Shown piece after piece: positions 9,097-19,621 of a stretch of 64,000 nt of DNA; positions within the stretch are counted from its first letter, which is position 1; every line of letters starts with the position of its first letter. The notes under the pieces are model-generated. The model was given only the letters and a program-made list of their open reading frames with translations, did no database searches and was not told the DNA's origin. Made by a program: the position numbers and the translations under genes. Origin of the DNA: Duganella sp. 1224 (lineage in GTDB: Bacteria > Pseudomonadota > Gammaproteobacteria > Burkholderiales > Burkholderiaceae_D). The DNA is taken from positions 124,001-188,000 of the forward strand of contig NZ_JACBYS010000005.1 in assembly GCF_013408245.1 (NCBI RefSeq). Direction: 5' to 3'.

Positions 9097-10062
9097 TTAC
9101 GGTTTGGCGCTATAGGGCAGGGGCATCCACTGGTATCCCTGGTCCAGCGCCTGCACATGGCCCAGGCCGGGGAAGGACAGGTGTGCCCCGCCGACCAGGT
9201 AGCCTTGCTTGGCCGCGTCCGATAGCCGGGTGGCGCGGGTGGCGCTGGCCGCGGCGGCGTCCACGTCGTAATCGATCGTCACTTCCGGGTGGCGGAACTG
9301 CACCTCCGCCGCGTGGATGATGTCACCCCACAAGTACAGTCGCTGGCCCTTGCTCTCCACCATGTAACCGTTCATGCCGGGCGTGTGGCCGTACTCCGTC
9401 ACGCTGTGGATGCCAGGGATGATTTCCGTATCGCCATCGAAAGTGCGCAGCATGCCCGCCGCCACGTACGGGTTCACGGTTTGCCGCGACTGCTGGAAGC
9501 TCAGGCGGCGCGTGCTGGGCGCCTGCGTTTCGTGCTGGACGTCGAGCCAGTAGGCCGGATCGCGCCGGTCGACGTACACCAAGGCTCGCGGGAAGACGCG
9601 CTTGCCGCCGACGCTCAGGCCGCCGGAATGATCGCCATGGATGTGCGTCAGCAGCACCACATCGATATCCTCCGGCGCATAGCCGGCGGCGCGCAAATTC
9701 GCCACCAGGCTGCCGGCGGTATCGCCGAAGAGTTCGCCCGCGCCGGTGTCGACCAGCACGCGCTGGCTGCCGGTGTCGATCAGGTAGCAGTTGATCGACA
9801 GCTCGACCGGCAAGGCCTGGTGCGCGTCCGCAAAGGCGCGGCGGACGGTGGCCGGATTGCTCATGATGCTGGACACGTCGCGCGACGCCACGCCATCGGA
9901 CAACACGGTGACGCGGAAGTCGCCCAGGCGCAGTCGGTAAAAGCCGGGTGTCTGTTGCGGCTGCCAGCCGCCGCCGCCGGCGGCGGTGGTTGCCGGCGCG
10001 GCGTTGGCGGGGCCGGCGATCAGCGCGGCGGCGAGGACAGCACGGGTGAGACAGTGGCGCAT
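9097..10062 (-). CDS. Secreted MBL-fold metallo-hydrolase (methyl parathion hydrolase/lactonase-like)
   Basis: 321 residues from the start chosen here, an ATG with AGGAGAA upstream, which opens a clean signal peptide (MRHCLTRAVLAAALIAGPANA). The frame extends 39 codons further upstream but those residues do not look like a protein start. The metal-binding motif HIHGDH is present (LTHIHGDHSGG), followed by further metal ligands (WGDIIHAAE region). The opening GFYRLRLGDFRVTVLSDG is typical of the family that includes organophosphate hydrolases and lactonases. The true substrate is unknown. It is transcribed away from a LysR regulator, its probable controller. Confidence 0.85.
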   Translation of the reverse strand: MRHCLTRAVLAAALIAGPANAAPATTAAGGGGWQPQQTPGFYRLRLGDFRVTVLSDGVASRDVSSIMSNPATVRRAFADAHQALPVELSINCYLIDTGSQRVLVDTGAGELFGDTAGSLVANLRAAGYAPEDIDVVLLTHIHGDHSGGLSVGGKRVFPRALVYVDRRDPAYWLDVQHETQAPSTRRLSFQQSRQTVNPYVAAGMLRTFDGDTEIIPGIHSVTEYGHTPGMNGYMVESKGQRLYLWGDIIHAAEVQFRHPEVTIDYDVDAAAASATRATRLSDAAKQGYLVGGAHLSFPGLGHVQALDQGYQWMPLPYSAKP

Positions 10063-10082
10063 ATCGTTCTCCTGCGGTAAGT

Positions 10083-11203: not shown

Positions 11204-12241
11204 TCAGGTGCGCCACTTGCCGCCGCGGGCCAGTGCGGCCACGGCGTCGGCGAAGGCGCGCGGGGCTTCCTGCGGCAGGTTGTGGCCGGCGCCGGGAATC
11301 TGGCGGTGCTGGCGCGGGCCGCTGAATCGGGCGGCGTCGGCGCGGCCGTCGGTGGCGGGCAGCAGGCCGTCCGCCAGCCCGTCCAGCGTGATGGCCGGCG
11401 ATTTGATCACCGGCTGGGCGGCCAGCAGGGCTTCCGTTTCCTCGTAATCGGGATAGCCGGCGGCCTGGCCCAGGCGGTGGCGGTAGGCGTGCAGCACCAC
11501 GTCCACGTAGTCGGGATTGTCAAAGGCCCGCGCCGCACGCGCAAAGCTGGCGTCGTCGAAGCGCCAGGCGGGCGAATTGTGTTTCCACAGCACGCGCGCG
11601 ATGGCCGCGCGGTTGGCGGTCAATCCCGCGCGGCCGCGCTCGGTCAGGAAGTAGTACTGGTACCACAGGCCGGCCTCCACCGGGGCCGGGGCCGGCGTGG
11701 CGGCACGGCCGATGTCCTGGATCAGGTAGCCGTTGACCGCCACCAGCCCGACGCAGCGCGTCGGCTTCATGGCGGCCGCCACGCAGGCGGCGCGGCCGCC
11801 CCAGTCGTAGCCGGCCAGCACCGCCTCCGGGATGTGCAGCGCGTCCATCAGGTCGATCACGTCCTGGCCCAGCGCGGCCTGCTGGCCGGCGCGCGGCGTG
11901 GCGGGGTCGAGGAAGCGGGTGCTGCCGTGGCCGCGCAAGTACGGCACGATCACGCGGTAGCCTTGCGCCGCCAGGCGCGGCGCCACCTCGGCGTAGCTGT
12001 GGATGTCGTAGGGGAAGCCGTGCAGCAGGATGACGGGATGGCCGTTCTCCGGCCCGGCTTGGTGGTAGCCGACGTCCAGCACGCCGGCTTCGACCTGCCG
12101 GGTCGGCATCCCGGCCAGCCGGCGCGCGGCGGCGGCGCTGGACGAGGCGGCGGCCGCCAGCGCCAGGCTGTCCAGCGACAGGCCGGCGGCCGCGCCGGCG
12201 GCGGCGCCCAGCAGCAGGCGGCGGCGTTGCAGCGGGTTCAT
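11204..12241 (-). CDS. Exported alpha/beta hydrolase, epoxide hydrolase-like, in bufferin operon
   Basis: 345 residues from the ATG that overlaps the stop of the upstream maturase gene as ATGA. The N-terminus MNPLQRRRLLLGAAAGAAAG resembles a twin-arginine signal. The oxyanion motif HGFPYD and the nucleophile motif GYDWGG (aspartate, not serine) place it with epoxide hydrolases and haloalkane dehalogenases; a catalytic His is in GAGHNLPQ. It is the last gene of a seven-gene minus-strand operon built round a bufferin-type peptide system. A hydrolase here is not part of the core system as known, so its role is open. Confidence 0.82.
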   Translation of the reverse strand: MNPLQRRRLLLGAAAGAAAGLSLDSLALAAAASSSAAAARRLAGMPTRQVEAGVLDVGYHQAGPENGHPVILLHGFPYDIHSYAEVAPRLAAQGYRVIVPYLRGHGSTRFLDPATPRAGQQAALGQDVIDLMDALHIPEAVLAGYDWGGRAACVAAAMKPTRCVGLVAVNGYLIQDIGRAATPAPAPVEAGLWYQYYFLTERGRAGLTANRAAIARVLWKHNSPAWRFDDASFARAARAFDNPDYVDVVLHAYRHRLGQAAGYPDYEETEALLAAQPVIKSPAITLDGLADGLLPATDGRADAARFSGPRQHRQIPGAGHNLPQEAPRAFADAVAALARGGKWRT

Positions 12242-13083
12242 GCCAGCGCCCCTTCGGCGCTGCCGGCCAGCCGGCGCGCGATGTCCAGCTCGCGCAGCAG
12301 CTCGGCCAGCGGCGGAATGTCGGCGTCGCGCTCGATCATGGTGGCGACCGGGCCGGCCAGCGTCATCACGCGCGCGTACAGCGCCCACACGGCGCGGCAG
12401 ACGTCGCGGTCGTGGGTGTCGATCAGGAGCTCGCCCGGCGTGTGGCCGGCCAGGTGGATTTGCCGCACGTGCCCGAACGGCAGGCCGGCCAGGTAGTCGT
12501 CCAGCCGGTAGCCGTGGTTGACCGCGCTGACGTAGATATTGTTCACGTCCAGCAGCAGGCCGCAGCCGGTGCGCGCGCACATCGCGGACAGGAATTCCCA
12601 CTCGCTCATCTCGGCCGGGGCGAAGCACAGGTAGCTGGACGGATTTTCAAACAGCATGGTGCGTCCTAGCGCCAGTTGCGCGCGGTCGATGTTGTCGCAG
12701 ACGATGTTCAGCGCCTCTTGCGTGTACGGCAGCGGCAGCAGGTCGTGCGAATTGAAGTTGTCGATGCGCGACCAGCTCAGGTGGTCCGACACGAACAGCG
12801 GGTCGATCTCGTCGGCCAGCGCGCGCAGGCGCCGCAGGTAGTCGCCGCGCAGGCCGTCGGCCGAGCCGACCGACAGCGACACGCCGTGCAGCGCCACCGG
12901 ATGGCGCGCGCGCACCTGGCGCAGAATGTGGCGCGGCTGGCCGCCGTCCACCATGAAATTCTCGGAGATGACTTCGACAAAATCAACCGCCACCGGCGTC
13001 TGCTGGTCGAGGAAGTCGGCGTAGTGTTCCTTGCGCAGGCCGAGGCCGAAGCCGGAAAAGGGGTTCATCGCGTGCCCGATCAT
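12238..13083 (-). CDS. bufB: DUF692/MNIO family bufferin maturase
   Basis: 281 residues. The protein has the family's conserved segments: FGLGLRKEHYADFL at the start, the metal-site segments ENPSSYL and DVNNIYVSAVNHGY, QIHLAGHT and DTHDRDV. This family (multinuclear non-heme iron oxidases, including MbnB, TglH and BufB) modifies cysteines of ribosomal peptides. The start at 13083 (MIGHAMNPF) or 13068 (MNPF) cannot be settled because neither has a strong ribosome site. It lies 51 bases after the Cys-rich precursor bufA2 and overlaps the following hydrolase by four bases. Inferred reaction: oxidative conversion of precursor cysteines into metal-binding groups. Confidence 0.88.
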   Translation of the reverse strand: MIGHAMNPFSGFGLGLRKEHYADFLDQQTPVAVDFVEVISENFMVDGGQPRHILRQVRARHPVALHGVSLSVGSADGLRGDYLRRLRALADEIDPLFVSDHLSWSRIDNFNSHDLLPLPYTQEALNIVCDNIDRAQLALGRTMLFENPSSYLCFAPAEMSEWEFLSAMCARTGCGLLLDVNNIYVSAVNHGYRLDDYLAGLPFGHVRQIHLAGHTPGELLIDTHDRDVCRAVWALYARVMTLAGPVATMIERDADIPPLAELLRELDIARRLAGSAEGALA

Positions 13084-13134
13084 AAAGGGAAAAACCGCGC
13101 GGCACGCCCGGGGCGCGCCGCGCGGGCGTGACGG

Positions 13135-13425
13135 TTATTTCTTCTTCGGCTCGGTCAGCGTGCCGCCGGCGGCCAGGCATTCGCTCTTGGTCTTGACCAG
13201 CACGCCTTCGCCCTTGCAGCTGTTCAGGCCTTTGCAATCGTTCTTGGCGGTGGCGCACAGGCTGGTGCCCTTGCAGGTGTTGATGCCGTAGCAGCGGCCT
13301 TTCGGCTCGGCGGCGTCGGCCGGCTTGTCGGCGGCTTGGGCGTGGGCGGCGGCGCCCAGGGCGCTGAGGGCCAGCAGCATCGAGGCGGCGGCGCGGGCGG
13401 AACGGGAGGCGGTGTTCTGGGTCAT
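13135..13425 (-). CDS. bufA2: Cys-rich secreted precursor, BufA2-type bufferin
   Basis: 96 residues with a signal peptide (ending near AHAQA) and six cysteines at 45, 51, 57, 64, 70 and 83. Five of them form a regular ladder: GRCYG, NTCKG, SLCAT, NDCKG, NSCKG. The repeated CKG/CYG pattern matches what is known of BufA2-type periplasmic bufferins, which bind copper after MNIO modification. The ATG has AAGGAG upstream. It sits directly before the DUF692 gene. Its cysteine spacing differs from the other precursor (15455-15739), so the maturase may act on two substrates. Confidence 0.8.
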   Translation of the reverse strand: MTQNTASRSARAAASMLLALSALGAAAHAQAADKPADAAEPKGRCYGINTCKGTSLCATAKNDCKGLNSCKGEGVLVKTKSECLAAGGTLTEPKKK

Positions 13426-13453
13426 GGTGTTCTCCTTGGTTGAAAAAAAATGG

Positions 13454-14212
13454 TTAGCGGCCGTGGGCCGCGTCGTCGATCACCTTCGCCACCTGGTCGG
13501 GTTGCGAGATGTAGGTCAGGTGGCTGCCCTTGACTTCGGTGACCTTGGCGCCGGCGCGCTGGTACATCCAGCGCTGCAGGTCCGGGCTCAGCGCGCGGTC
13601 TTCGGTGGACAGGATGGCGTAGCTCGGCTTGTGGTGCCAGGCGGCGGCCCAGATCTGCGTGTTGAAGGCGGCCACCGTGGCCGGCACCTGCGAGATCGCC
13701 ATGTAGTTGGTGCGGTTTTCCGGCAGGTCGGCGCCGACATCGGCGTGGAAGCGGGCCGGGTCGACGAACAGGTGGCCGTCCTGCGTCGGCCGGACGCTGT
13801 TGCTTGGCGACGGCATCGAGCCGATCACCTGCGCCACGCTTTCACCGATGTCCGGCAGCAGCGCCGACACGTAGACCAGGGCCTTCACCTTGTCGCGCTC
13901 GCCGGCGGCGGAGATCACCGCGCCGCCCGAGCTGTGGCCGACCAGCACCACCGGGCCGACCTGCTGGTCGAGGATGTCGCGGGTGGCGGCGACGTCGTCG
14001 TCCAGGCTGGTGTGGGGCTGCGCCGCCACCGTGACCTTGTAGCCTTTCTGCGTCAGGATGTCGTGGATCACGCGCCAGCCGGAGCCGTCGACGAACGAGC
14101 CGCTGACGATGACGATGTTCTTGACCGGCGCGGCGCTGGCGTTGGCGTTGGCGTGCAGCGCCGGTGCGGCGGCCAGGGCCAGCGCGGCCGCCAGGGTGGG
14201 GATGCGTTTCAT
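13454..14212 (-). CDS. Secreted alpha/beta hydrolase (esterase-like) in bufferin operon
   Basis: 252 residues. The signal peptide is [25 protein letters not shown]. The nucleophile elbow is GHSSGG (serine), with a candidate acid in STEDRAL and the catalytic His in [10 protein letters not shown], so the triad looks complete. It resembles small periplasmic esterase-like proteins often annotated only as alpha/beta hydrolase. The start overlaps the DoxX stop as ATGA, so translation is coupled. It is placed inside the operon, between DoxX and bufA2, and its substrate is unknown. Confidence 0.82.
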
Positions 14213-14688
14213 GCGTTTTCTCCATCAGGTTGGGAAGGGTGCAGGCGGCGCCACAGCAGGTGGTCCAGCGACCACGCGCCGGCGCCGCGGGCGATCAGCG
14301 GCAGCAGCAGGCCGGCCCAGCTCAGGTGCGTGGGCCAGGCGTCCGGGTAGACGAAGATCTCGATCACCAGCGTCATGCAGAACATGCCGAGGGCGGCCGG
14401 CCGCGTCGCCAGGCCCAGCGCCAGCAGCACCGGCAAGAAGTTCTCGGCGGCGGTGGCCAGCTGCGCCGCCACTTCCGGCGGAATCAGCGGCAGCGCGTAT
14501 TCGCTGCGGAACAGGTCGTAGGTCGAGGGCTTGATGGTGAGGAAGCCTTCGACCTTGGTGCGGCCGGACAGGAAAAACACCGCGCCGATGCCGAGGCGGG
14601 CAATCAGCAGCAGCAGGCTGTCGGGCACGGCGCGCCGCAGCCAGGCGCGCCAGGCGGGCGCCGTGTCTTGCAGGTGGAGGGGGGTCAT
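14209..14688 (-). CDS. DoxX family membrane protein in bufferin operon
   Basis: 159 residues with about four hydrophobic helices. The first is [22 protein letters not shown], and the conserved RTKVEGFL...[19 protein letters not shown] follows, typical of DoxX. A DoxX-like protein (HvfX) is a known companion of DUF692/DUF2063 clusters. It overlaps the upstream DUF2063 gene and the downstream hydrolase gene by four bases each (ATGA), so the three are translationally coupled. The ATG has AAGGAA upstream. Molecular role unclear; membrane redox function is a common suggestion for the family. Confidence 0.88.
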
Positions 14689-15446
14689 AACATTCCTTCA
14701 GTCGGGGTGTCGATGCCGGTGATCAGTTCGGCGCCCAGCCAGTGCGCCAGCAGCGCGCCGGCCTGGGCGATGCCGTCCTGCTCGCCGCAGTGGTCAACCA
14801 GCCAGTCGCACAACTCGGCGAAGCGGCCGTCGCGCCGCACTTGCAGCAGCGCCGCGTACTCCAGCGGTTCGGCCATGCGCAGCACGCTGGTGCGGCCGCG
14901 CCGCCAGACGATGTAGCCGCCGGGCGCGGCCAGCATCTCGCCCTCCGGCGGCGGCCGTTGCTCCCACAGCGCGCTCCAGATGGCTTCGGCGTTGGTGGTG
15001 GCGGCGCGCAGCCTTAGCGACGGCGTCAGCCGCAGCACCGCGCGGTCCCAGTCCACCGCCGCCAGCCGCTCGGCCGTCAGCGGCGCGGCGTCCGCTGCCA
15101 CGAAGGCGGCGTTCAGCGCGTGCTCGATCCAGGCCAGCTCGTGCAGGTCCGGGTGGTTGGCGTAGGCTTGTTCCAGCGTGTGCTGGAAACCGTCGGCGTA
15201 GGCGTCCAGCGTCCAGCCGTGCGGCGGGCAGGCGTCGATGTGGCGCACCGCCATGCCGAGGAAGGCGTCCTCGCCCATCCAGCCGCGCAGCAGCGGAAAC
15301 GCGTGTTCGAGGCAGCCCGCCAGCTGGCTGCGGTAGTTGTTCTGGTACACCGCCAGCCGCGCGGCGGGTCCCAGGCGTTGCGCCAGCGCGGCGTCCGGCG
15401 CCACCAGCCAGGCGCCGAAATCGCGTTGCAGGTCGGCCAGTTTCAT
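14685..15446 (-). CDS. bufC: DUF2063 (HvfC/BufC-like) bufferin maturation partner
   Basis: 253 residues from [14 protein letters not shown]. The N-terminal DUF2063 domain is recognisable by [26 protein letters not shown] and [15 protein letters not shown]. Members act with the DUF692 enzyme, probably by presenting the precursor. The start lies 8 bases after the bufA1 stop; the frame extends upstream through bufA1 but that part is a shadow. The DoxX start overlaps its stop. In this operon it is separated from its expected partner bufB by three genes, an unusual order. Confidence 0.85.
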
Positions 15447-15454
15447 CGCGGCGC

Positions 15455-15739
15455 TCAGCGTGGCGTCAGCGAGCCGTAGCCTTTCGGCGTCTTGATCTTG
15501 GTGCAGGTGCCCTTGTCGACCAGCACCCAGGCGTTGCCCTGGTAGTCGGTCTTGGCGGTGCCGGCGCAGCTGGTGCCGGCGCCGGCCGCGCAGTCGTTCT
15601 GGCCGGCCTTGGCGACGCCGTAGCATTTTTCGGTCGGCTTCTTGGCGGCGTCCTTGGCGTCGGCGGCCTCGGCGCTGCCGGCCAGCGCGGTCAGCGACAG
15701 CGCCAGTGCGGCGGCCAGGGCGGTGTGGGTGCGGTGCAT
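15455..15739 (-). CDS. bufA1: DUF2282 secreted precursor, BufA1-type bufferin
   Basis: 94 residues. The signal peptide ([25 protein letters not shown]) is followed by a short mature part with four cysteines at 39, 50, 58 and 79 in the DUF2282 arrangement: [17 protein letters not shown], then TSCAG, then GTC. DUF2282 proteins are the BufA1 bufferin precursors, copper-buffering peptides made from cysteine by an MNIO enzyme. It is the first gene of the minus-strand operon, and its ATG has GAGGAG upstream. The divergent neighbour is a NarL-type response regulator. Confidence 0.85.
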
Positions 15740-15907: not shown

Positions 15908-16576
15908 ATGCACATGGGGCCAGCACCAATCACCGTACTGATGGTAGACGATCATCCGATTTTTCTGGACGGCGTGGCCGGCGCGCTGGACGCGATGGAC
16001 GATGTGCGCCTGGTCGGCCGCGCCGGCACCGGCCAGCAGGCCATCGAGCTGCACCGGCTGCTGCGCCCGGACGTCACGCTGATGGACCTGCAGCTGCCGG
16101 ACATGCACGGCAGCGCCGCCATCAGCGCCATCCGCCGCGACAGCCCGGGCGCGCGCGTGATCGTGCTGACCACTTATGAAGGCGAGGCCCACGCGGCGCA
16201 GGCGATCCGCGCCGGCGCGGTCGGCTACATGCTGAAAAGCGCGGTGCGCCACGATCTGCAGGACACCATCCGCAGCGTACACGCCGGGCGCCGCCGCATC
16301 CTGCCGGCGGTGGCCTGCGCGCTGGCCGAGCAGATGCACACCGAGGCGCTGAGCCAGCGCGAGATCGAGGTGCTGCGGCTGGCCGCGGTCGGCAATACCA
16401 ACCAGAAGATCGGCGACCAGCTCGGCCTGTCCGAGGGCACCATCAAGACCCACATGAAAAACGTGATGGCCAAGCTGCAGGCCAAGGACCGCACCCACGC
16501 GGTGCTGCTGGCGATCCAGCGCGGCATCATCAGCATGGGCGCCGGCGGCCGCCTGCCGCCGGGCCTGCGGCTGTAA
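15908..16576 (+). CDS. NarL/FixJ-type response regulator
   Basis: 222 residues. The receiver domain has the acidic pair D14-D15 (MVDDHP), phosphoacceptor D60 (TLMDLQLPD) and K110 (GYMLKSA). The LuxR-type helix-turn-helix (LSQREIEVLRLAAVGNTNQKIGDQLGLSEGTIKTHM) forms the C-terminal third. ATGs at 15908 and 15914 are both possible. The gene converges on a propeller sensor kinase with only six bases between the stops, so the two are the obvious pair. Being divergent from the bufferin operon, it may control it, but no binding site can be named. Confidence 0.92.
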   Translation: MHMGPAPITVLMVDDHPIFLDGVAGALDAMDDVRLVGRAGTGQQAIELHRLLRPDVTLMDLQLPDMHGSAAISAIRRDSPGARVIVLTTYEGEAHAAQAIRAGAVGYMLKSAVRHDLQDTIRSVHAGRRRILPAVACALAEQMHTEALSQREIEVLRLAAVGNTNQKIGDQLGLSEGTIKTHMKNVMAKLQAKDRTHAVLLAIQRGIISMGAGGRLPPGLRL

Positions 16577-16582
16577 CTCGCG

Positions 16583-19500
16583 CTAGCCGCGGCGGCGCTG
16601 CCACCAGCCGCGCAGCCGCCGGCCCCAGCCGGGACGGCTGTCGCGGTCGTAGGCGCGGCCGGCCGGAATGCGGGCCGTCACCTGCAGCCCGCGCGGCACG
16701 GCCGGCGTCAGCGTCAGCACCCCGTTCAGCGCGGCGGCGCGCTCGCGCATGCCCACCAGGCCCCAGTGGCCATCCTTGCCGCCCTGGCGCAGCACCTCGT
16801 CCGCCAGTCCCTTGCCATTGTCGCTGACGGTCAGCGTCAGCTCCTGGGCGCCGTAGTCGAGCGCCAGCAGCACGCGGCTGGCGCTGGCGTGGCGGCAGGC
16901 GTTGAGCAGCGCCTCGGCGCCGATGTGGTAGACCTCCTCCCACGCCAGCGGATCGAGGCGACGGCGCACGCCGCGCACCTGCAGCGCGATCGCCAGCCGG
17001 TGCTCGGCCTGCATGCGTTCGACCAGGCGGGTGAAGGCGGTGGCCAGGTCGCCGCCGTGCACGCTGGCCAGGCGCAGCCCCATGACGGCGTTGCGGCCCT
17101 CGACGATCACGCCGTCGGCCTCGGCCAGCAGCGCGTCCAGCTGCGCGCGCGCGGCGCTGTCGGCCGGCAGGCGCTGGCTGACGGCGCTGAAGCGCAGCAC
17201 CAGCGCCTGCACGCTTTGCAGCAGGCTGTCGTGCAGCGCGCGGGCGATGCGCTCGCGCTCCAGCAGGCGCGCGGCCAGCACCGCGTTGAGGCGGCGCACC
17301 AGCTGGCGCATGCGCATCAGGTACAGGCCGTAGGCGGCGGCCAGCGCGGCGCCGGCGCACAGCAGGTAGAACCAGGCGGTCTGCGTGAAGCTGGGCTGGA
17401 TGGCGAAGCGCAGCGTGGCGCCTTGCTCGTTCCACACGCCGTCCGCGTTGGCGGCCTTGACGGTGAAGCGGTAGCTGCCGGGGCCGAGGTGGGAATAGCT
17501 GGCGCCGCGGCGGGTGCCGGCCAGTTGCCAGTCGCGGTCCACGCCCTCCAGCTTGTACCAGACCTGCATCCGCTCCGGCATCGTCAGGCTGAGCGCGGCG
17601 AAGCCGATGTCCAGCCGCATCGGCTTTTGCGGCAGCAGCAGGCCGGGCGTCGGCGCGTACGGGCGGTTGTCGACGCTGAGCGCGGTGATCTGCAGCGCCG
17701 GCGGCAACGGGTTGCGGTACATGCGGGTGGTGTCCAGCACGCCGATGCCCTCGGTGCTGGCAAACCACAGCTTGCCGCTGTCGTCGAGCGCGCCGTTGGC
17801 CACCGGCGCGACCAGCATCGGCGCGCCGGGATAGCCGTCGGCGGCGTCCAGCAGCTCCATGCGCAGCGGCCGGCGCGGGTCGCCGACGCTGGCGTTCCAG
17901 TCGGCGGCGCGCACGTGCGCCAGGCCGAGGCCGGTGTGCAGCCAGCGGTCGCCGTTGGGCAGGATGACCAGGCCGGCCAGGTTGTTCAGCACATCCGGAT
18001 CGGCGGCGCGCAGCCGCTCGAAGCGGCCATGGCGCAGCACCGCCGTGCCCTCGGCGCCCGAAATGACGACCTCGGCTTGCGCATCGATCAGTTGCAGCGC
18101 GCCCAGGCTGGCGGCGGCGGCCGGCGCGTAGTCGGTCAGGCGGCCGTCCTGGTAGTGCTGCAGGCTGCCGTTGCGGTGGCCGAACCACATCGCGCCGTCG
18201 GGCGCGGCGGTCATCACCCGCTCCTGCGGCGCGATGCCGAGGCTGGCCGCGCCGCGCCAGGCGCCGTCGCGGTAGCGGAACAGGCCGCAGTCGCGCAGGC
18301 TGGCCCACAGCGCGTCGCGGTCCTGCATCAGGCGGTTGACTTGCTCGCTGCGCGCGCCGGGGCAGGCGGGCGGCATCGGCAGCGTGGTCAGCCTGCCGTC
18401 GCGGCGGATCTCGATGCCGCGCGCGCTGGCGCTGAGGATGGCGCCGTCGCGGCCGGCCACCGCCAGCCGGCGTTCGCCCTCGCGCAGCGCTGGCGCGGCG
18501 GCGCCGGCGACGTCCCATAGCTGGTCGAGATTGACGCCGCCGACCCAGATGCGGCCCTGGCCGTCGGCGGCCAGCGTCGGCACGGTGACGTTGTCCGGCA
18601 GCGCGATGGTGCGGATGCGCTGGTTGCGGAAGCGCTCCAGGCCGCTGGGCGTCATGGCCCACAGATTGCCCTCGCGGTCTTCCAGCATGCCGGTCACGCG
18701 CGGATTGCTGAGCTGCCAGCCCTGGGCGATGCGCTCCGCCGGCAGCTGGCTTGGATCGAAGCTGTCGCTGTGCGGCAGGTCCTGCTTGCGGATGCGGGCG
18801 ATGCCGTTGGGGGGGCCGAACAGCCACAGGTTGCCGTCGGCGTCGAACAGGTGATGGGCCTGGGCGATGCGGTAGCGGCGCGATTCCTCGCGCGGCTGCA
18901 CCGGGCCCGGCTGGCCGTTGGGCACGCGCACGATCAGCTGGCCCTTGCGCCGCCACATCGCGCCGTCCGGCGCGTAAAACGCGTTGTCCTCGCCGGCGTG
19001 GCCGGTGGGATGGAAGCGCCGCGCTTCGCGGTCCAGCTTGTACCACTCGTTGCTCAGCCGCACCCATACCTGGCCGTACTGGTCCAGCGTGCCTTCCTGC
19101 ACGGTCTGGCGCGGCAAGCCCCAGCTGGCGTTGATGGTCTGCCACGCGCCCTTGGCGTAGTGGATCAGGCCGGAGCGGGTGCAGATCCAGACGCTGCCGT
19201 CGTTGTCGGCGATGAGGTCGTACACCGTGTCGACCTGGGCCGCGCTCCACGCCGGCAGCGGCACGATCTCGCCCTGGCGGATCAGGTTGACGCCGCCGTT
19301 GATGTGGCCGACCAGCAGGTCGCCGCCGGCGGTGGCGGTCAGCGCCGAGATGCGCGGGCTGAGCAGAAGCTGACCGGTGGGGGAGCGGTAGCGTTCGAAG
19401 CGCAGGCCGTCGAAGCGGTACAGGCCCTGTTCGGTGCCGATCCACAGCCAGCCGTCGCTGGTCTGGGCCATGGCGGTGATGCTGACGGGCGCGCCGTCCT

Positions 19501-19621
19501 GGCGGCGCCAGGTGTCGTGGTGGTAATCGAACAGGCTGACGGCCGGGTCCAGCGCCCACGCGTGGGGCAGGCCGGACAGCATGGCCGCCAGCAGGCAAAG
19601 CCGTGAAAATAAACTGCGCAT
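16583..19621 (-). CDS. Two-component sensor kinase with periplasmic beta-propeller and Y_Y_Y domain
   Basis: 1012 residues. A signal sequence is followed by about 650 residues of repeated propeller blades of the Reg_prop type (DGWLWIGTEQGLYRFDG, DGSVWICTRSGLI, GRIWVGGVN and others). Next come a Y_Y_Y-type domain near residue 670, one transmembrane helix (YLLCAGAALAAAYGLYLM), a HisKA_3 region with the phospho-His H797 (ARALHDSLLQSVQAL), and an ATPase domain with NACRHA and VSDNGKGL. This architecture often senses polysaccharide or nutrient fragments in the periplasm. Partner: the convergent NarL-type regulator. The upstream gene, GH30, is divergent across 289 bases. Confidence 0.92.
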   Translation of the reverse strand: MRSLFSRLCLLAAMLSGLPHAWALDPAVSLFDYHHDTWRRQDGAPVSITAMAQTSDGWLWIGTEQGLYRFDGLRFERYRSPTGQLLLSPRISALTATAGGDLLVGHINGGVNLIRQGEIVPLPAWSAAQVDTVYDLIADNDGSVWICTRSGLIHYAKGAWQTINASWGLPRQTVQEGTLDQYGQVWVRLSNEWYKLDREARRFHPTGHAGEDNAFYAPDGAMWRRKGQLIVRVPNGQPGPVQPREESRRYRIAQAHHLFDADGNLWLFGPPNGIARIRKQDLPHSDSFDPSQLPAERIAQGWQLSNPRVTGMLEDREGNLWAMTPSGLERFRNQRIRTIALPDNVTVPTLAADGQGRIWVGGVNLDQLWDVAGAAAPALREGERRLAVAGRDGAILSASARGIEIRRDGRLTTLPMPPACPGARSEQVNRLMQDRDALWASLRDCGLFRYRDGAWRGAASLGIAPQERVMTAAPDGAMWFGHRNGSLQHYQDGRLTDYAPAAAASLGALQLIDAQAEVVISGAEGTAVLRHGRFERLRAADPDVLNNLAGLVILPNGDRWLHTGLGLAHVRAADWNASVGDPRRPLRMELLDAADGYPGAPMLVAPVANGALDDSGKLWFASTEGIGVLDTTRMYRNPLPPALQITALSVDNRPYAPTPGLLLPQKPMRLDIGFAALSLTMPERMQVWYKLEGVDRDWQLAGTRRGASYSHLGPGSYRFTVKAANADGVWNEQGATLRFAIQPSFTQTAWFYLLCAGAALAAAYGLYLMRMRQLVRRLNAVLAARLLERERIARALHDSLLQSVQALVLRFSAVSQRLPADSAARAQLDALLAEADGVIVEGRNAVMGLRLASVHGGDLATAFTRLVERMQAEHRLAIALQVRGVRRRLDPLAWEEVYHIGAEALLNACRHASASRVLLALDYGAQELTLTVSDNGKGLADEVLRQGGKDGHWGLVGMRERAAALNGVLTLTPAVPRGLQVTARIPAGRAYDRDSRPGWGRRLRGWWQRRRG

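What the first reader, a model, noticed from the sequence alone, without database searches (positions are those of the whole stretch)
11204..15739. Two-precursor bufferin operon with unusual gene order and two embedded alpha/beta hydrolases
Seven minus-strand genes run bufA1 (DUF2282) - DUF2063 - DoxX - Ser hydrolase - bufA2 - DUF692/MNIO - Asp-nucleophile hydrolase, several coupled by ATGA overlaps. MNIO enzymes are known to convert precursor cysteines into metal-binding groups, and BufA1/BufA2 precursors are copper-buffering. Here a single maturase appears to serve two precursors with different cysteine patterns (4 Cys: 39, 50, 58, 79; 6 Cys: 45, 51, 57, 64, 70, 83). The DUF2063 partner is separated from the maturase, and two exported hydrolases with different nucleophiles sit inside the operon. 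The hydrolases might modify, release or protect the mature peptide, a function not described for the core system as I know it.
Basis: partly seen in the sequence, partly recalled or inferred. Interest (0 to 1): 0.72.

Follow-up and report, generated by a model that had tools for sequence, protein, structure and literature searches.

The report
Two-bufferin operon with eroding hydrolase partners
This is a conserved bacterial gene cluster for two small, probably copper-binding modified peptides that almost always carries an exported hydrolase-like protein; in several lineages that protein has lost its catalytic residue yet is kept, hinting that it now does something other than ordinary hydrolysis.

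Summary
In detail: seven minus-strand genes, Buf1 - DUF2063 - DoxX - Hyd1 - Buf2 - MNIO - Hyd2, with the stated cysteines and three 4-base overlaps. It is not a local oddity. MNIOs at least 69% identical form one clade beside Buf2-type maturases. In an MNIO-driven census Hyd1 lies near them in 54 of 55 loci (the miss is cut by a contig end; one of the 54 is partial), against 0 of 28 sampled loci with other MNIOs, through about six gene orders. The composition was listed in 2021 as 'Pep4' in Pseudomonas, without a function. DUF2063 placed early is peculiar to one Duganella subclade.

New here: the hydrolases look domesticated. Hyd1 has lost its serine nucleophile in 20 of 65 linked proteins (three or more origins) but keeps Asp205/His231; 0 of 28 unlinked homologues lost it. 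Hyd2 is often shrunk, yet 43 of 44 linked copies end in WR(T), against 0 of 27 others. Classical hydrolysis of the peptides is therefore unlikely to be the shared role; periplasmic binding or base catalysis fits better, though Hyd1 seems mildly relaxed after serine loss. The window's own Hyd1 and Hyd2 still look catalytically intact. Function is inferred, not shown.

The parts
15455..15739 (-). Buf1 precursor (DUF2282), 94 aa, 4 Cys (39, 50, 58, 79), signal-peptide-like N-terminus (by eye)
   Evidence: PF10048 89.4 bits; Cys positions; the four Cys conserved in at least 95% of 69 aligned Buf1 rows
14685..15446 (-). DUF2063 partner protein (BufC / PME-type 1), 253 aa
   Evidence: PF09836 69.8 bits; NCBIfam HvfC 34.2 bits, below its cut-off of 142
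14209..14688 (-). DoxX membrane protein, 159 aa; 4-nt overlaps with both neighbours
   Evidence: PF07681 63.4 bits; sequence
13454..14212 (-). Hyd1, exported-looking alpha/beta-hydrolase-fold protein of the SABP2 / hydroxynitrile lyase / pyrethroid hydrolase kind, 252 aa; Ser94, Asp205 and His231 present here
   Evidence: PF12697 71.1 bits; AlphaFold2 pLDDT 89.8; Foldseek 8hfw, 5y57, 6tj2, 1xkl; residues; census
13135..13425 (-). Buf2 precursor, 96 aa, 6 Cys (45, 51, 57, 64, 70, 83), Cys-Lys motifs
   Evidence: NF050166 BufA2 83 bits over cut-off 60; Cys conserved in at least 95% of 70 aligned Buf2 rows
12238..13068 (-). MNIO maturase (BufB), 276 aa, Buf2-type lineage; IERDADIPPL at the presumed specificity site
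   Evidence: PF05114 347.9 bits; NF050167 364.9 over 310; site; tree
11204..12241 (-). Hyd2, epoxide-hydrolase-like protein with twin-arginine-like start (by eye), Asp146 nucleophile motif, His320 motif, C-terminal tail GKWRT, 345 aa
   Evidence: PDB 5bov E 2.8e-89; motifs and tail; tail absent in 27 other homologues
15908..16576 (+). Divergent LuxR-type response regulator (neighbour, seen beside the cluster only in the window's subclade)
   Evidence: PF00072, PF00196; beside the cluster in L075, L076, L077, L046

Best explanation
A dedicated two-bufferin operon. The MNIO with its DUF2063 partner converts cysteines of both Buf1 and Buf2 in the cytoplasm; both peptides are exported and bind copper (or another soft metal) in the periplasm; DoxX is the membrane component. 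Hyd1 is a dedicated periplasmic partner recruited from ordinary exported hydrolases. Its shared role does not need the serine nucleophile but does need the Asp205-His231 pair and cap residues such as Asn166-Arg167. I think it binds or handles the mature peptides, or uses the Asp-His pair as a general base, rather than cleaving esters or peptides. Hyd2 is an accessory partner that in many lineages is losing its catalytic body while keeping a C-terminal Trp-Arg-(Thr) tail, perhaps a docking tail. Shown: gene content, linkage, ancestry, nucleophile loss, tail. Inferred: substrates, cell location, copper, and every functional step.
For: Linkage: Hyd1 near the MNIO in 54 of 55 MNIO-driven loci of the clade (window 1/1, Duganella 13/13, rest of family 13/13 with L097 partial, Pseudomonas 27/28, the miss L120 cut by a contig end) and in 0 of 28 sampled loci with other MNIOs. 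Sharp identity gap between the groups: at least 69% against at most 55% among matches listed. One MNIO clade, 98/99 support. Hyd1 stays through about six gene orders. Linked Hyd1 (65 rows) plus L063 group together, SH-aLRT 99, quick tree without bootstrap. Ser94 lost in 20 of 65 linked rows (18 of 54 census genes), 0 of 28 unlinked; Asp205 and His231 in 64 of 64 readable rows. Ser-less groups stay under purifying selection: Hyd1 pN/pS 0.18, 0.28, 0.14 and 0.39, against 0.28 for unlinked homologues. WR(T) tail in 43 of 44 linked Hyd2 genes and 0 of 27 others.
Against: No experiment. All linked Hyd1 descend from one recruitment, so the linkage is one origin plus persistence, not many gains. In the window both hydrolases keep their nucleophiles, and 45 of 65 linked Hyd1 keep Ser. 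Asp205/His231 kept throughout argues against a pure pseudoenzyme; four Ser-less proteins have Asp, which can itself be a nucleophile. Signs of relaxation after Ser loss: Hyd1 against MNIO pN/pS is 0.18/0.16, 0.28/0.14, 0.14/0.18 and 0.39/0.27 in Ser-less groups, but 0.09/0.13, 0.05/0.12, 0.19/0.28, 0.32/0.26 and 0.35/0.41 in groups with Ser. One complete cluster of the clade outside the census, L144 of Cupriavidus pampae, lacks Hyd1, which sits with a second Buf2 elsewhere in that genome. Short Hyd2 evolves faster than Hyd1 and MNIO of the same loci. No copper regulator or copper gene was recognised among 10 upstream genes scanned.
Confidence: 0.43

Rival explanations
1. Co-regulated bystanders: the hydrolases belong to the same stress regulon but detoxify unrelated small molecules (esters, epoxides, lactones) and never touch the bufferins.
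For: Closest solved relatives act on small molecules (SABP2, pyrethroid hydrolase, epoxide hydrolase). Hyd1-like and Hyd2-like genes also occur side by side away from buf genes (L175, L191, L196, L068).
Against: Linkage is near absolute through rearrangement. A detoxifying enzyme should not lose its nucleophile repeatedly while staying under purifying selection.
Confidence: 0.27
2. Hydrolytic tailoring: Hyd1 and Hyd2 cleave, release or edit the modified peptides in the periplasm by classical nucleophilic hydrolysis.
For: Exported-looking, next to the precursors; triad intact in the window, Ser kept in 45 of 65 linked Hyd1.
Against: Nucleophile lost in 20 of 65; full Hyd2 in only 13 of 63 scored rows. 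The best fold matches of Hyd1 are small-molecule enzymes. The sections of PMC12452194 that I read describe no such step.
Confidence: 0.18
3. Hitch-hiking: the operon moves between species as a block and the hydrolases are passengers in decay.
For: Patchy distribution: 13 of 74 genomes of the genus, 28 of 398 Pseudomonas, 1 of 369 in a class-wide sample, the window itself. Hyd2 eroded or absent in 50 of 63 rows. Hyd1 somewhat relaxed relative to MNIO in three of four Ser-less groups. L144 lacks Hyd1; L097 is decaying.
Against: Hyd1 is near the MNIO in every census locus that is not cut by a contig end; pN/pS stays well below 1; Asp205 and His231 are invariant; the tail is conserved.
Confidence: 0.1

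Closest known systems
'Pep4' gene cluster of Pseudomonas fluorescens-group strains (PMC8719888, eLife 2021, appendix list)
   Same: Same seven kinds of protein: DUF2282 peptide, DoxX, hydrolase, second short peptide, DUF692, DUF2063, hydrolase. 27 of my 28 Pseudomonas loci have this order of the core genes.
   Different: The window puts DUF2063 and DoxX directly after Buf1. The passages that I saw give a list only, with no function or analysis of the hydrolases.
Buf1 and Buf2 bufferin clusters (PMC12452194)
   Same: Core of precursor, MNIO, DUF2063, DoxX; signal-peptide precursors; 4-Cys and 6-Cys patterns
   Different: Two unlike precursors with one MNIO, plus a conserved hydrolase; that paper says additional conserved genes occur in extremely low proportions and that tandem precursors exist.
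SABP2 / hydroxynitrile lyase / pyrethroid hydrolase group of alpha/beta hydrolases
   Same: Fold and, in the window, the Ser, Asp and His positions
   Different: Nucleophile replaced by Gly or Asp in 20 of 65 linked relatives; exported-looking; operon-bound
Klebsiella putative epoxide hydrolase 5BOV
   Same: Sequence match over residues 47-335 of Hyd2, E 2.8e-89; also the best fold match of a short Hyd2
   Different: Cluster Hyd2 carries a WR(T) tail and is often reduced to about half size

Membership tests
Bufferin biosynthetic cluster | Precursor with DUF2282 or Buf2 signature and 4 or 6 Cys | tested here: met
   PF10048 over cut-off for Buf1, NF050166 over cut-off for Buf2; Cys positions
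Bufferin biosynthetic cluster | MNIO of the BufB kind | tested here: met
   NF050167 364.9 bits, cut-off 310; beside Buf2-type MNIOs in the tree
Bufferin biosynthetic cluster | DUF2063 partner (PME-type 1) | tested here: met
   PF09836 over cut-off; the NCBIfam HvfC model is below its cut-off
Bufferin biosynthetic cluster | Cys converted to thiooxazole; copper binding; copper induction | not testable with these tools
   Reported for Caulobacter Buf1 in PMC12452194 (section 21 read); not shown for these peptides
Pep4 cluster (PMC8719888) | Seven listed protein kinds in one cluster | tested here: met
Pep4 cluster (PMC8719888) | Listed gene order | tested here: not met
   The window has DUF2063-DoxX after Buf1; 27 of 28 Pseudomonas loci have the listed order of the core genes, the other being cut by a contig end
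Ser alpha/beta hydrolase (SABP2-like esterase), for Hyd1 | Ser, Asp and His triad positions in the fold | tested here: met
   Met in the window; Ser94 in 45 of 65 linked rows; fold
Ser alpha/beta hydrolase (SABP2-like esterase), for Hyd1 | Hydrolytic activity | not testable with these tools
   No assay
Epoxide hydrolase, for Hyd2 | Asp nucleophile motif, His motif, full length with cap | tested here: met
   Window GYDWGG, GHNLPQ and full length; cap tyrosines not checked
Epoxide hydrolase, for Hyd2 | Activity on epoxides | not testable with these tools
   No assay

The most novel reading that the evidence does not exclude
Two enzymes of the alpha/beta-hydrolase superfamily have been domesticated by a metallophore operon: Hyd1 as a serine-independent periplasmic chaperone or base catalyst for thiooxazole bufferins, and Hyd2 reduced in many lineages to a mini-fold that survives to present a C-terminal Trp-Arg-(Thr) docking tail. 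This would be a new accessory, periplasmic stage in MNIO peptide maturation or copper handling.
Probability: 0.3. Interest if true: 0.75.

Novelty: new variant of a known kind. Interest (0 to 1): 0.57.

Why it matters
MNIO-made peptides are a fast-growing class, and the papers that I read leave open what happens to bufferins after export. This cluster offers a natural experiment: one maturase beside two unlike precursors, and an accessory protein whose catalytic serine has been replaced several times by evolution. It tells experimenters to test binding and base catalysis, not just cleavage, and gives ready-made Ser, Gly and Asp forms to compare.

Tried and rejected
Rejected: that the order or the DUF2063 separation is a property of the system (seen only in the window's subclade). 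Rejected: that hydrolase linkage is an accident. Rejected: that the short Hyd2 frames are all random decay. Their frames are tightly kept in length (150-155 codons stop to stop in 12 Pseudomonas rows), mean pN/pS is 0.24 there and 0.17 and 0.36 in two other groups, and the tail persists; but they evolve faster than Hyd1 and MNIO of the same loci, and L097 does look like true decay. Led nowhere: the class-wide sample (1 of 369, the window itself); 10 upstream genes scanned for a shared regulator (none common to all; two Pseudomonas loci share a Trans_reg_C/AAA protein); literature for a function of the hydrolases (listings; passages). One search was a wasted search (the word 'buffering' matched). 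Not done: transcriptomes, supplements of PMC12452194, prediction of complexes, the pdb_via library.

Weak points of my counts. Loci were found with Hyd1 and are left out of the 55-locus census unless the MNIO search found them again; 14 of them do enter the 65 linked Hyd1 rows, the MNIO tree and the Hyd2 counts. The 28 control loci were my choice out of well over a hundred lower matches listed. One of the 27 tail-less Hyd2 homologues (in L104) lies only about 4 kb outside its cluster. Fisher's test (p 0.0005) ignores relatedness; the number of origins is the fairer figure. Rows were scored with profiles built from the same loci. Signal types (Sec for Hyd1, twin-arginine for Hyd2) are read by eye from recalled motifs. 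That the residue after the catalytic Asp is the FonB-Phe250 site is my mapping by motif; FonB itself was not aligned. On re-checking I lowered the best explanation from 0.45 to 0.43 and raised hitch-hiking from 0.08 to 0.10, because of the pN/pS comparison and L144.
Full report
What is there. Cysteine positions match, and three junctions are 4-base ATGA overlaps. The genome also has two other MNIO loci: L002, a DUF2282 precursor followed by one 582-residue frame that holds both MNIO and DUF2063, and L003, a canonical Buf1-MNIO-DUF2063-DoxX cluster.

Is the arrangement conserved? I searched with the MNIO, not with the hydrolase: 74 genomes of the genus, 392 of the family, 398 Pseudomonas and 369 across the class (only the window matched). 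Listed matches fall into two groups with a clear gap: at least 69% identity, and at most 55%. I fetched the high group and annotated it with profile models. With the window this makes 55 loci: 14 from Duganella, 13 more from the rest of the family, 28 from Pseudomonas. Hyd1 is near the MNIO (centres within 7 kb) in 54; the exception, L120, ends at a contig edge beside the MNIO, and the Hyd1 of L097 is only partial. Buf1 is in 54 and Buf2 in 53. Of the lower group I fetched 28 loci out of well over a hundred listed (7 from the genus, 16 from the rest of the family, 5 from Pseudomonas, Paraburkholderia and Dyella genomes); none has Hyd1, 22 have Buf2 and 4 have Buf1, one of them (L088) having both. 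Loci found independently with Hyd1 add Dyella, Luteibacter and Paraburkholderia. One complete cluster of the clade outside the census, L144 of Cupriavidus pampae, lacks Hyd1; that genome has Hyd1 with a second Buf2 elsewhere, L063.

Order. By stop codons and leaving Hyd2 aside, the layouts are Buf1-DoxX-Hyd1-Buf2-MNIO-DUF2063 (27 Pseudomonas), Buf1-Hyd1-Buf2-MNIO-DUF2063-DoxX (14), DoxX-Buf1-Hyd1-Buf2-MNIO-DUF2063 (3), the window's own Buf1-DUF2063-DoxX-Hyd1-Buf2-MNIO (3 plus the window), Hyd1-Buf1-Buf2-MNIO-DUF2063-DoxX (2), and a few single variants. So genes move, but Hyd1 stays.

Ancestry. The 67 MNIO rows of this clade form one side of a branch (98/99) beside the Buf2-only enzymes and apart from the five Buf1-only ones, though the latter sit on long branches. 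The residue after the catalytic Asp, which I take for the site that PMC13097082 (section 14 read) links to Cys-Lys substrates when it is Asp, is Asp in 21 of 22 Buf2-only enzymes, in 46 of 70 rows of the clade, and Ala in the window. I read this as a Buf2 maturase that acquired a Buf1 partner. Whether it modifies both is untested. Of 56 genomes with the cluster, only G247 (97% complete, about 520 contigs) has no other MNIO match, and it carries both precursors (L106).

The hydrolases: Hyd1. It models well (pLDDT 89.8), and its best fold matches are an alpha/beta hydrolase (8hfw), a pyrethroid hydrolase, an extracellular SABP2-like hydrolase, hydroxynitrile lyases and SABP2. Linked Hyd1 rows group together, with the Cupriavidus copy L063, which itself sits beside a Buf2 (SH-aLRT 99 in a quick tree). 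Position 94, the nucleophile, is Ser in 45, Gly in 16 and Asp in 4 of 65 linked rows; L063 has Gly; all 28 other unlinked homologues have Ser. Within the census alone, 18 of 54 Hyd1 genes lack Ser (with the three places whose row stands under another locus id). Asp205 and His231 are present in all 64 linked rows that can be read. On the Hyd1 tree this needs four changes including L063, and three without it; on the MNIO tree three when scored as Ser or not, six when Gly and Asp are told apart. Ser-less groups still show Hyd1 pN/pS of 0.18, 0.28, 0.14 and 0.39, against 0.28 for unlinked homologues. Set against their own MNIOs (0.16, 0.14, 0.18, 0.27), three of the four are higher; in groups that keep Ser, Hyd1 is lower than MNIO in four of five. 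So loss of Ser comes with mild relaxation, not with collapse. Asn166 and Arg167, in the region that I take for the cap, are invariant in linked rows and variable outside. A Gly94 form still matches Abhydrolase_6 with 68.7 bits.

The hydrolases: Hyd2. It is full length with its motifs in 13, eroded in 29 and absent in 21 of 63 scored rows of the MNIO tree (L060, L097, L106 and L120 left out; Hyd1-driven loci included). Eroded forms run from about 150 to 320 residues, mostly 150-200. The short ones keep a twin-arginine-like start, the first half of the fold and the last helix; a 149-residue one is predicted to fold (pLDDT 82.6 for the best model, 38 for the worst of five) and matches epoxide hydrolases best. 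The striking mark is the C-terminus: 43 of 44 linked Hyd2 genes that can be read to the end finish in WRT (39) or WR (4), whether intact or eroded; the exception is L060 of Dyella silvatica. None of 27 other homologues does. Hyd1-like and Hyd2-like genes also sit side by side away from buf genes, with nucleophiles in place (L175, L068, L191, L196), so ordinary exported hydrolases are the likely source.

How it works. Cytoplasmic modification by MNIO and DUF2063, export, and copper buffering follow from PMC12452194 (sections 14, 18, 19 and 21 read) for Caulobacter Buf1, with preliminary data there for Buf2. For the hydrolases I favour a periplasmic handling role or a base-catalysed step, since the nucleophile is dispensable and the Asp-His pair is not. 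The window's copies are intact, so hydrolysis here cannot be excluded.

Prior art. The composition was published as 'Pep4' (PMC8719888, passages seen). PMC12452194 reports tandem precursors and says additional conserved genes are rare. PMC13097082 and PMC12538549 were seen in passages and mention no hydrolase in such clusters there. Neither the listings nor the passages seen describe a function for the hydrolases, the nucleophile loss or the tail; the library lacks most subscription papers.

Verdict. A real, conserved variant of a known system, already listed in print by composition, with a new and testable puzzle in its hydrolase-fold partners.

Noticed in passing
L002 (G000:C3 near 246058): MNIO and DUF2063 partner in one 582-residue frame next to a DUF2282 precursor; lower MNIO matches in most other genomes of the genus also lie in frames of roughly 480-800 codons, so the fusion may be common there.
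   Followed up: partly
L063 10001-11129 and L144: Cupriavidus pampae has a Hyd1 (Gly at the nucleophile) next to a second Buf2, away from its MNIO cluster, and that cluster lacks Hyd1.
   Followed up: partly
L104 6617-11846: A cluster with three precursors: an extra Buf2 between DoxX and Buf1.
   Followed up: no
L097: A decaying copy: partial Hyd1, Hyd2 split in two frames, no Buf2 called; the same genome has a fuller copy, L098.
   Followed up: no
window 15908-19621: Response regulator and large sensor kinase beside the operon; found beside it only in the window's subclade, so perhaps a local regulator.
   Followed up: partly
window 9097-10065: Exported-looking metallo-beta-lactamase-fold protein resembling AidB-type lactonases but below that family's cut-off (210.8 against 360 bits).
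   Followed up: no
L175, L068, L191, L196: Hyd1-like and Hyd2-like genes side by side without buf genes, as if an older gene pair.
   Followed up: partly
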